Shown here: positions 5,738 to 31,255 of the stretch, piece after piece
How positions within the stretch are numbered: position 1 is the stretch's first letter
Layout: each line of letters begins with the position of its first letter
NCBI GenBank assembly: GCA_903863015.1
Contig: CAIPAI010000042.1
Span: 1-64,000 of the forward strand
DNA from: an uncultured Actinomycetes bacterium
Lineage (GTDB): Bacteria > Actinomycetota > Actinomycetes > Nanopelagicales > Nanopelagicaceae
Reading direction: 5' to 3'
DNA length: 64,000 bases
Notes under the pieces: generated by a model
Told to the model about the DNA's origin: nothing
Seen by the model: the letters and a program-made list of their open reading frames with translations, nothing else
Database searches by the model: none
Translations under genes and position numbers: made by a program

Positions 5738-5844
5738 CAGGTCATGAGTTCCAGCGTTTAGCCCCGGCTTGCTGGACGGCAACCCTCCACCGCGGTGGGG
5801 TGCTCCGGGTGAGGACCAGGTCGACACCGGTCGACAAGCGCGGG
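5738..5844 (+). promoter_or_regulatory. SAM-IV riboswitch aptamer upstream of metY
   Basis: The stretch from GGTCATGAG through CCGGCTTGCTGG, CGGCAACCCTCC, the CCGCGGTGGGGTGC hairpin and GGGTGAGGACC matches the conserved core of SAM-IV, an actinobacterial S-adenosylmethionine riboswitch. A second hairpin (GTCGAC-ACCG-GTCGAC) and the sequence AAGCGCG follow, as expected for the distal SAM-IV pseudoknot. It precedes metY-metX, the expected target. SAM binding should lower their expression. Confidence 0.92.
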
Positions 5845-5872
5845 TCTCTCAACGGAGACCCCTCAGGAGGGG
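5842..5872 (+). promoter_or_regulatory. Probable expression platform of the SAM-IV riboswitch
   Basis: Two hairpins share bases 5859-5861. One is GGGTCTC/GAGACCC (5842-5848 with 5855-5861). The other is CCCCT/AGGGG (5859-5863 with 5868-5872), which would cover the Shine-Dalgarno-like AGGAGG at 5865-5870. There is no T-tract, so translational rather than transcriptional control is the better guess. The mechanism is inferred from pairing only. Confidence 0.5.
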
Positions 5873-29548: not shown

Positions 29549-29585
29549 CCGCGGAGATCTCTGGAGATCTCTCCGCGGTTTTTTT
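29549..29585 (+). terminator. Rho-independent terminator after DUF3040
   Basis: A 9-bp GC-rich stem (CCGCGGAGA/TCTCCGCGG) with an inner CTC/GAG pairing, followed by seven T. It ends the DUF3040 transcript and insulates the mraZ promoter. Confidence 0.93.
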
Positions 29586-29640
29586 CTGCCCACATCCGGC
29601 CGCTAGGGGGAGAGCGAGGCCAGAAAAGGGGGAAAGGTGG

Positions 29641-29668
29641 TTGACAGGGGAGTGAAAGGGAGTAAAGT
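29641..29668 (+). promoter_or_regulatory. mraZ promoter
   Basis: A consensus -35 TTGACA (29641-29646) and -10-like TAAAGT (29663-29668) with a 16-bp spacer. It lies 54 bases before the mraZ ATG and overlaps the G-rich repeats proposed as MraZ boxes. Confidence 0.65.
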
Positions 29669-29715
29669 GGGGGAAACGCTCAGCTGGGGAAGGTTGAGCA
29701 TGGTGGGAAGTGGGG
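29647..29715 (+). promoter_or_regulatory. Candidate MraZ-binding G-rich repeats
   Basis: GGGGAGTGAA, AGGGAGTAAA and GTGGGGGAAA are spaced exactly ten bases apart (29647, 29657, 29667). Further TGGGG/TGGGA copies lie at 29685, 29704 and 29711. MraZ is known in other bacteria to bind TGGG-type repeats with 10-bp spacing upstream of its own operon. These repeats overlap the promoter, so autorepression is likely. Confidence 0.6.
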
Positions 29716-29721
29716 GTCGGC

Positions 29722-30153
29722 ATGTTTTTGGGCACGCATGAACCCAAACTCGATGAAAAAGGTCGATTGATCCTTCCTGCCAAATTCCGAGACGACTTAG
29801 CCGATGGCGTCGTGGTGACCAAGGGCCAGGAGCACTGTCTCTATCTCTTCCCACTCGATGAATTCACCACCATGACCGAGGCGATGAAAGCCGCCCCGGT
29901 GACTGCAAAAGGCGCTCGTGACTACATGCGTGTCATGTTCGCGGGCGCACATGACGAAGTTCCTGACAAGCAAGGTCGCATCACTATTCCGGCGCATCTT
30001 CGTGAGTACGCCTCGCTTGATCGCGCCTGCGTGGTCATCGGAGCAAATACCCGCGTAGAGATTTGGGACTCCCAAGCCTGGGCTACCTACCTCGCCGCAC
30101 AAGAACAAGGTTTCGCGGATGTCTCCTCGGAGGTCTTCCCCGGAATCTTCTAA
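29722..30153 (+). CDS. mraZ: Transcriptional regulator MraZ
   Basis: DNA-binding regulator of the division and cell-wall cluster, 143 residues with two SpoVT-AbrB-like repeats: [23 protein letters not shown] split as [14 protein letters not shown] then LILPAKFRD, and later [18 protein letters not shown] 29722 matches the family start MFLGTHEP; an upstream in-frame GTG at 29710 is less likely. It is the first gene of the cluster and faces candidate MraZ boxes in its own promoter. Confidence 0.93.
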
Positions 30154-30154
30154 C

Positions 30155-30223
30155 CACGAATGGCCGTTGCCCGCGTAGCGACGCCACTTCCCCGGCGCCG
30201 CTCCCGGGCAACGACCACTCGTG
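30155..30223 (+). ncRNA. mraW RNA motif (cis-regulatory hairpin before rsmH)
   Basis: CACGAATGGCCGTTGCCCG (30155-30173) pairs along its whole length, with two G-U pairs, with CGGGCAACGACCACTCGTG (30205-30223). An inner stem (GCG-A-CGCC with GGCG-C-CGC) closes an ACTTCCCC loop at 30186-30193. The mraW RNA motif described for Actinobacteria is a hairpin upstream of mraW (rsmH) with a CUUCCCC terminal loop, so position, shape and loop all agree. Its ligand and mechanism are unknown to me. Confidence 0.8.
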
Positions 30224-30313
30224 ATGGCTAGCAATAGCAGATCAGTACCGGATTAGTACCAGAGCAAATATGAGCAGAGATAAGAGCAGTACGAAGAGGA
30301 AAAGGGGGAAGAG

Positions 30314-31255
30314 ATGGAGTATCCGCACCAGCCGGTTCTCTTGCAACGCTGCCTCGACCTCTTTGCCCCTGCGCTCGATAGTGCGAACGCGGTCTGCGTA
30401 GATATGACTCTCGGCATGGGTGGCCATAGTGAAGCTCTCTTAAACCGTTTCCCAGAACTCACTCTGATCGGCATTGATCGCGATCCCAAGGCCCTTGAAA
30501 TAGCCGGCGAACGCCTTGCTCGATTCTCGGATCGCACACATTTGGTGAGTGCCACGTATGACCAACTGACTGAAGTTTTGCGCGATCTTAATATTTCGAG
30601 GGTCCAGGGTGTACTCGGAGACCTTGGAGTGTCCTCGCTCCAACTCGACGAGGTCTCCCGCGGTTTTGCGTACTCCCGCGAAAGCGGCCTCGATATGCGC
30701 ATGAATCCGCGTGAAGAGCTCACTGCAGAAGTGATTGTGAATGAGTATTCCGCACCTGAGATTGTGCGAATTCTGCGCGAGTATGGTGAAGAACGCTTTG
30801 CACCCCGTATTGCATCTGCAATTCTTCGCGAACGCGCTACTGGGCGACTCACTTCAAGTTCGCAATTAGTAGACATCGTCCGCGATGCAATTCCCGCGGC
30901 TACCCGCCGCACCGGTGGGAATCCTGCTAAGCGCACCTTTCAAGCATTGCGTATCGCAGTGAATGACGAATTAGGAATTCTTGAACGTGCAGTTCCACAA
31001 TCGCTTCAGGTGCTCGAAGTCGGTGGCCGCGTTGTGATGATGGCGTATCACTCGCTGGAGGATCGCATCGTAAAGCGCTATTTCATGGCGGCCGTTGCTT
31101 CAGATACTCCTATTGATCTACCTGTAGATATGCCAAGTTTGGCTGCGAAGTTTCGGGCTGTTGCCAAAGGCGAGTCACCCTCTGAAAGTGAAATCTTGGA
31201 GAACCCAAGGGCTGCTTCGGCTCGACTCCGAGCAGTAGAGCGGGTGGCCGCGTAA
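30314..31255 (+). CDS. rsmH: 16S rRNA (cytosine-1402-N4) methyltransferase RsmH (MraW)
   Basis: SAM-dependent methyltransferase of 313 residues acting on 16S rRNA near the P site. Features are the start YPHQPVLLQRCLDLF, SAM-binding motif DMTLGMGGHSEALL, GIDRDPKAL, GDLGVSSLQLDEVSRGF, the NPAKRTFQALRIAVNDEL motif and YHSLEDRIVK. RBS GGGAAGAG precedes ATG 30314. Its stop overlaps ftsL by one base. Confidence 0.96.
   Translation: MEYPHQPVLLQRCLDLFAPALDSANAVCVDMTLGMGGHSEALLNRFPELTLIGIDRDPKALEIAGERLARFSDRTHLVSATYDQLTEVLRDLNISRVQGVLGDLGVSSLQLDEVSRGFAYSRESGLDMRMNPREELTAEVIVNEYSAPEIVRILREYGEERFAPRIASAILRERATGRLTSSSQLVDIVRDAIPAATRRTGGNPAKRTFQALRIAVNDELGILERAVPQSLQVLEVGGRVVMMAYHSLEDRIVKRYFMAAVASDTPIDLPVDMPSLAAKFRAVAKGESPSESEILENPRAASARLRAVERVAA

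What the first reader, a model, noticed from the sequence alone, without database searches (positions are those of the whole stretch)
30155..30223. mraW RNA motif between mraZ and rsmH
The 19-bp stem and ACTTCCCC loop match the actinobacterial mraW motif, whose function is unresolved. The G-rich repeats of the mraZ promoter region (GGGGAA and similar) could in principle pair with the CUUCCCC loop in the same transcript, which would link the RNA and the leader. That pairing is speculation, but the sequences are complementary over several bases (for example GGGGAAG at 29686-29692 with CTTCCCC).
Basis: partly seen in the sequence, partly recalled or inferred. Interest (0 to 1): 0.52.

Follow-up and report, generated by a model that had tools for sequence, protein, structure and literature searches.

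The report
mraW hairpin matching neighbouring ribosome-binding sites
Between two cell-division-cluster genes this freshwater actinobacterium has a known but unexplained RNA hairpin, and in its bacterial family the hairpin's never-changing loop is complementary to the unusual ribosome-binding sites of the two genes beside it, which suggests that the hairpin controls how much of both proteins is made.

Summary
The hairpin is real (30155-30223, 26 pairs, loop ACUUCCCC, z -7.9): a diverged mraW RNA (RF01746, 40.5 bits, cut-off 50). CTTCCCC lies between mraZ and rsmH in 251 of 251 class loci, 102 not chosen by the motif, and the stem covaries. In the window's family GGGGRRG, which pairs with the whole loop word, lies within 25 nt of the start in 35 of 37 mraZ and 35 of 37 rsmH genes, against 1 of 258 background genes. 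Best reading: here the loop is a cis antisense element against both flanking ribosome-binding sites. Why it is invariant class-wide stays open; it outlived one loss of mraZ (14 of 14) and decayed after another (9 of 39 intact).

The parts
30155..30223 (+). mraW RNA hairpin; 5' arm begins 2 nt after the mraZ stop codon
   Evidence: fold z -7.9; RF01746 40.5 bits; covariation of the apical stem in 111 distinct cores
30187..30193 (+). invariant loop word CUUCCCC
   Evidence: 251 of 251 class loci with mraZ and rsmH, of which 102 were not picked by the motif
30305..30311 (+). GGGGAAG at the rsmH ribosome-binding site, 7-bp complement of the loop
   Evidence: sequence; duplex -13.9 kcal/mol; GGGGRRG kept in 35 of 37 family rsmH genes, background 1 of 258
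29686..29692 (+).
   Evidence: sequence; duplex -14.3 kcal/mol; same in the 3 nearest relatives L092-L094
29678..29699 (+). small leader hairpin whose loop shows GGGGAA; possible kissing partner; weak (z -0.72)
29641..29668 (+). predicted mraZ promoter: TTGACA (29641-29646) and TAAAGT (29663-29668)
   Evidence: read by eye from the sequence; not mapped experimentally
29647..29676 (+). three 10-bp GTGGRG-like boxes, presumed MraZ operator
29722..30153 (+). mraZ (in-frame GTG at 29710 possible)
   Evidence: ORF; PF02381 matched in G000
30314..31255 (+). rsmH (mraW)
   Evidence: ORF; 95% identity to rsmH of three actinobacterial MAGs

Best explanation
The hairpin is the mraW RNA, an intercistronic element of the mraZ-rsmH transcript. 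Its apical loop CUUCCCC is presented as a single-stranded recognition word. In the window's family (Nanopelagicaceae-like freshwater actinobacteria) both flanking genes have ribosome-binding sites of the form GGGGRRG, which pairs with all seven loop bases (C-G, U-A or U-G). I infer that the loop pairs in cis with the rsmH ribosome-binding site about 110 nt downstream, and alternatively with the mraZ site upstream, and so lowers translation of one or both, linking the output of the MraZ repressor to that of RsmH. Shown: structure, loop invariance, and the family-specific complementarity against background. Inferred: that pairing forms, that it represses, and what relieves it. Not explained by this: why the loop is equally invariant in families whose ribosome-binding sites do not match it. 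The original partner there is probably a trans factor.
For: Family counts: GGGGRRG in -25..-1 of 35/37 mraZ and 35/37 rsmH genes. With 14 low-GC named relatives that I added: 45/50 and 48/51; 42/51 loci have it at both genes, 51/51 at one or both. Controls: 1/79 other genes of the same loci; 1/258 genes from 18 random stretches, and 1 of the 46 with a strong SD; 2/49 window genes, one being rsmH. Two whole family genomes hold 17 and 21 GGGGRRG-N2-8-ATG sites; of the 30 fetched (15 of 17, 15 of 21) rsmH is the only gene shared, mraZ being among them in one. Flanking bases vary while the seven positions stay purine-correct (42 and 36 distinct 25-mers, matching rows only). Duplexes -13.9 and -14.3 kcal/mol against -8.9 for the plain mraZ SD.
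Against: Outside the family the complement is near chance: mraZ 53/200 (34.7 expected), rsmH 19/199 (14.2 expected), yet the loop is just as invariant. So the loop is not kept by this pairing in general. Because it never changes where mraZ is present, no compensatory change between loop and ribosome-binding site can be seen. All family counts come from one clade. GGGGRRG may be kept for another reason, such as pairing with a trans C-rich RNA. [quoted passage not shown] In G000 itself GGGGAAG before ATG occurs 32 times (control 11).
Confidence: 0.45

Rival explanations
1. A conserved trans factor, most likely a protein, binds the single-stranded CUUCCCC word class-wide; the family's GGGGRRG sites are a later addition or unrelated.
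For: Loop invariant in 251/251 although cis complements are near chance outside the family. In Streptomycetaceae a second CUUCCCC has arisen 21-27 nt downstream in the same hairpin, unpaired in the four folds made, as if the word itself were the site. The loop is kept in 14/14 mraZ-less loci of six genera.
Against: No candidate protein was found. It does not predict the matching ribosome-binding sites at both flanking genes in one family.
Confidence: 0.27
2. The long stem is an RNA-processing site (for example RNase III) that separates mraZ mRNA from the rest of the cluster and leaves a stable apical fragment.
For: In M. tuberculosis a 31-nt RNA-seq species from the region upstream of rsmH gives 60- and 30-nt Northern bands (PMC3526491, passages). 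In C. glutamicum the 5' end of rsmH mRNA falls inside the 3' part of the motif and in C. diphtheriae downstream of it (PMC3890552, PMC5784534). TANNNT is depleted 10-60 nt after the loop (2 of 251, 26.5 expected), so a conserved promoter there is unlikely. Title only: RNase III cleaves mraZ mRNA in C. glutamicum (Maeda 2016, cited in PMC6705760).
Against: RNase III does not need an invariant loop. The reported cleavage is in the mraZ coding region by its title. The 5'-end data are reported as transcription starts.
Confidence: 0.15
3. The hairpin is released as a trans small RNA with a C-rich seed loop, working like 6C/B11.
For: 6C/B11 loops pair with G-rich ribosome-binding sites (PMC10470900, passages). 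Discrete small RNA bands in M. tuberculosis. A second C-rich word in Streptomycetaceae.
Against: Between two family genomes no conserved target other than rsmH was seen among the 30 of 38 sites fetched. The element stays beside rsmH.
Confidence: 0.08
4. The loop pairs with the G-rich mraZ promoter repeats.
For: 7-bp complement at 29686-29692.
Against: The repeats are GTGGRG operator-like boxes mostly upstream of the predicted start of transcription; no class-wide enrichment of complements.
Confidence: 0.05

Closest known systems
mraW RNA motif (Rfam RF01746; Weinberg 2010, PMC2864571, passages)
   Same: Place between mraZ and rsmH, long stem, invariant CUUCCCC loop, full-length model match
   Different: 40.5 bits, below the 50-bit cut-off; shorter stem; flanking ribosome-binding sites complementary to the loop, which I found in no paper that I saw
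6C / B11 small RNA of actinobacteria (PMC10470900, passages)
   Same: C-rich hairpin loop whose complement is a G-rich ribosome-binding site
   Different: Cis, inside an operon, one C-rich loop in this lineage, no evidence of trans targets
Cis RBS-sequestering leaders and ColE1-type kissing loops (recalled, from no call)
   Same: A 7-nt loop fully complementary to a regulatory site
   Different: One loop, two alternative targets on either side; pairing not shown

Membership tests
RF01746 mraW RNA | Score at or above the curated 50-bit gathering threshold | tested here: not met
   40.5 bits; absent from the gathering scan. For comparison, 117 of 394 class genomes exceed it and 255 of 394 reach E 1e-3
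RF01746 mraW RNA | Full-length match to the consensus hairpin and CUUCCCC loop | tested here: met
   Model positions 1-107 aligned, loop identical
RF01746 mraW RNA | Lies directly upstream of rsmH in an actinobacterium | tested here: met
RF01746 mraW RNA | Covarying stem across homologues | tested here: met
   111 distinct apical cores: 88.7% paired (70.7% after shuffling), 165 double-change cells (42 after shuffling)
Cis RBS-sequestering element (works like) | Complementarity between element and RBS beyond background | tested here: met
   Within the family only: 35/37 and 35/37 against 1/258; near chance outside it
Cis RBS-sequestering element (works like) | Compensatory changes between loop and RBS | tested here: inconclusive
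   The loop never varies in loci with mraZ; only A/G variation opposite U is seen
Cis RBS-sequestering element (works like) | Effect on translation | not testable with these tools
   needs a reporter
MraZ operator within the hairpin DNA | 10-bp GTGGRG boxes | tested here: not met
   Two-box score median -8.7, shuffled -7.8, mraZ upstream 23.9
6C small RNA | Two C-rich loops in a free transcript | tested here: not met
   One C-rich loop here; Rfam finds only RF01746 and chance hits in the region; whether it is a free transcript is not testable

The most novel reading that the evidence does not exclude
One invariant hairpin loop serves as a two-sided antisense switch. In Nanopelagicaceae-like bacteria the ribosome-binding sites of both genes flanking it are built to pair with the loop, so that the transcript can hold down either the MraZ repressor or RsmH, but not both through the same loop at once.
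Probability: 0.35. Interest if true: 0.68.

Novelty: new variant of a known kind. Interest (0 to 1): 0.55.

Why it matters
The mraW RNA has had no known function since it was described in 2010 ('remains unknown', PMC5640933, passage), although it sits near the head of the division and cell-wall cluster in the class Actinomycetes, mycobacteria and corynebacteria included. A family in which both neighbouring ribosome-binding sites match the loop gives a concrete, cheaply testable mechanism, and the class-wide tally separates what that pairing can and cannot explain.

Tried and rejected
Loop pairs with the mraZ leader or coding region class-wide: 121 of 249 loci have a full complement, 117 expected. 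Rejected as a general rule.

Loop needs mraZ: Streptomyces-like genus g26 lost mraZ and the loop is intact in only 9 of 39 (22 changed, 8 without hairpin), which looked decisive. But six other mraZ-less genera keep it in 14 of 14, and the RsmH tree needs at least two changes of mraZ presence. Rejected as a rule; within the class, every locus found without the loop still lacks mraZ.

Hairpin DNA as MraZ operator: no box match. Conserved promoter after the loop: TANNNT depleted. Coding explanation: all seven loop positions, third codon positions in any frame included, are invariant. Element common to the whole phylum: of 58 loci outside the class examined, 51 had a readable rsmH and none of these has CTTCCCC within 300 nt upstream of it; 7 could not be read. 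Six-base complements outside the family: mraZ 64% GGGRRG, but the excess over its own shuffles (0.71 against 0.37 for strong SDs) is like that of background strong SDs (0.26 against 0.12).

Limits: start codons were chosen by best SD energy, for targets and controls alike. A first control covered only 15 mraZ genes because of a length cut and was replaced. 148 of the 251 loci were picked by RF01746 and so carry the motif by construction; the 102 others (80 picked by RsmH, 22 picked by RsmH from RF01746-negative genomes) and the window also carry it. Ten loci were left out before that count: one without rsmH (truncated), nine without a tblastn mraZ hit, which became part of the g26 set. The 14 named loci in the 51-locus family set were added by me for low GC and similarity; the 37-locus count leaves them out. 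The 9/22/8 split of g26 was made by eye on the folds.

Full report
WHAT IS THERE. The 69 nt at 30155-30223 fold into a hairpin of 26 pairs with the 8-nt loop ACUUCCCC (MFE -44.4 kcal/mol, z -7.9, 0 of 200 shuffles as good). It starts 2 nt after the mraZ stop codon and ends 90 nt before the rsmH ATG. With Rfam it aligns to RF01746 (mraW) over all 107 positions at 40.5 bits, E 8.3e-7, below the 50-bit gathering score; the ordinary scan therefore lists only a SAM-IV riboswitch elsewhere in the window. The genome has 1.94 Mb in 65 contigs. Its RsmH is 95% identical to those of three actinobacterial MAGs, two with lake-like labels, and 55% to records named Candidatus Nanopelagicaceae. That it is a freshwater bacterium of Nanopelagicaceae or a close family is my inference.

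HOW OLD AND HOW CONSTRAINED. In the class, 255 of 394 genomes have an RF01746 match at E 1e-3, 117 above the cut-off. Looking at the DNA directly, 251 of 251 loci with both mraZ and rsmH carry CTTCCCC between them. 148 of these were picked by the motif; 80 were picked by RsmH alone, 22 by RsmH from genomes with no motif match, and one is the window. In folds all seven bases of the word are unpaired in an apical loop in 159 of 251, and six are unpaired in most of the rest that were shown (the listing was cut). The apical stem covaries: over 111 distinct cores 88.7% of cells pair against 70.7% after shuffling, and 165 cells are double changes against 42 (s.d. 8.9) after shuffling; in the fixed-register subset sliding the 3' arm by one or two columns drops pairing of pairs 4-8 from 92% to 27-43%. 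Outside the class, none of the 51 loci with a readable rsmH has the word within 300 nt upstream of it (58 examined, 7 unreadable).

Upstream of mraZ, 243 of 246 loci have three GTGGRG boxes in 10-bp phase with a score of 15 or more of 18, against 2 of 246 shuffled; period 10 stands out from 7-13. The boxes overlap the -35 and -10, and are most simply MraZ operator DNA (that MraZ binds such repeats is recalled, from no call). In the window they run 29647-29676. The loop has a full 7-bp complement (GGGGRRG, counting U-G) between 90 nt upstream of mraZ and its stop in 121 of 249 loci, with 117 expected from local shuffles. So there is no class-wide pairing with the leader.

GGGGAAG also stands at 30305-30311, two bases before the rsmH start codon; the + strand of the window holds only five. 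In the window's family, counting only genomes the tool files in it plus the window, GGGGRRG lies within 25 nt of the start in 35 of 37 mraZ and 35 of 37 rsmH genes. With 14 named low-GC relatives that I added it is 45 of 50 and 48 of 51, 42 of 51 at both genes, 51 of 51 at one or both. Background is 1 of 79 other genes in those loci, 1 of 258 genes in random stretches of 18 family genomes and 1 of the 46 of those with strong SDs, and 2 of 49 window genes, one being rsmH itself. Bases around the word vary; the word changes only between A and G opposite the loop's U's (columns counted on matching rows only). In two complete family genomes the pattern GGGGRRG-N2-8-ATG occurs 17 and 21 times (controls 3 and 6). 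Of 30 sites fetched, 15 from each, rsmH is the only gene in both lists, and mraZ appears in one. In the window and its three nearest relatives rsmH has exactly GGGGAAG, while mraZ's GGGGAAG (29686-29692) lies 29 nt upstream of the ATG in a small, statistically weak hairpin (z -0.72). Loop duplexes are -13.9 (rsmH) and -14.3 (mraZ leader) kcal/mol.

LIMITS OF THAT READING. Outside the family the same count is mraZ 53 of 200 (34.7 expected) and rsmH 19 of 199 (14.2 expected), and relaxing to six bases adds nothing beyond strong, G-rich SDs. The loop is as invariant there as here. The pairing therefore explains the family's ribosome-binding sites, not the loop's age. One clade supplies all supporting counts, and an invariant loop cannot show compensation. 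In the window's own genome GGGGAAG before ATG is found 32 times (control 11), so the rsmH site taken alone is not extraordinary; its persistence at both flanking genes is.

A NATURAL EXPERIMENT, AND ITS CORRECTION. The loop is intact in 9 of 39, changed in 22, and the hairpin is gone in 8, with repeated changes on the RsmH tree. This suggested that the loop serves mraZ. Sister genera correct it: in the same family 30 of 30 loci picked by MraZ keep the loop, but so do 14 of 14 loci of six genera without mraZ, and the tree needs at least two changes of mraZ presence. The loop can outlive mraZ. Many of these loci carry a second CUUCCCC 21-27 nt downstream in the same hairpin, unpaired in the four folds made, which fits a word recognised as single strand.

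PAPERS. PMC2864571 (passages) lists the motif as likely cis-regulatory. PMC5640933 (passage) says its function remains unknown. PMC3526491 (passages) reports a 31-nt RNA-seq species upstream of rsmH in M. tuberculosis with Northern bands of 60 and 30 nt, and an rsmH SD GGGGAGG. PMC3890552 (table passages) and PMC5784534 (passages) place rsmH 5' ends in the 3' part of, or downstream of, the motif. PMC10470900 (passages) describes C-rich loops of B11 pairing with ribosome-binding sites. Searches that returned no paper on this pairing.

VERDICT. Best explanation 0.45, interest 0.55.

Noticed in passing
window 5740-5846 (+): SAM-IV riboswitch, 107.4 bits.
   Followed up: no
Possibly an undescribed element in the same place.
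   Followed up: partly
L360-L365, L367-L371, L373, L377, L381, L387, L389-L397, L399, L400, L402, L409: Second CUUCCCC word 21-27 nt after the loop word, inside the mraW hairpin of Streptomycetaceae; unpaired in the four folds made (L360, L363, L389, L392).
   Followed up: partly
L236-L241 and other g26 loci: mraZ lost while its promoter and part of its operator stay in front of rsmH; a new CCCUU(C/U) word near the 3' side of the hairpin (28 of 31 hairpin-bearing loci; CCCTTC in 8 of 251 mraZ-bearing loci).
   Followed up: partly
window 50269 (-): The only other window gene with GGGGAAG within 25 nt upstream of its start (130 aa); weak SD energy.
   Followed up: no
window about 29549-29586 (+): Terminator-like inverted repeat followed by a run of T's upstream of the mraZ promoter, seen by eye.
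   Followed up: no
L394, between the hairpin and rsmH: A long inverted repeat lies between the hairpin and rsmH (seen by eye).
   Followed up: no
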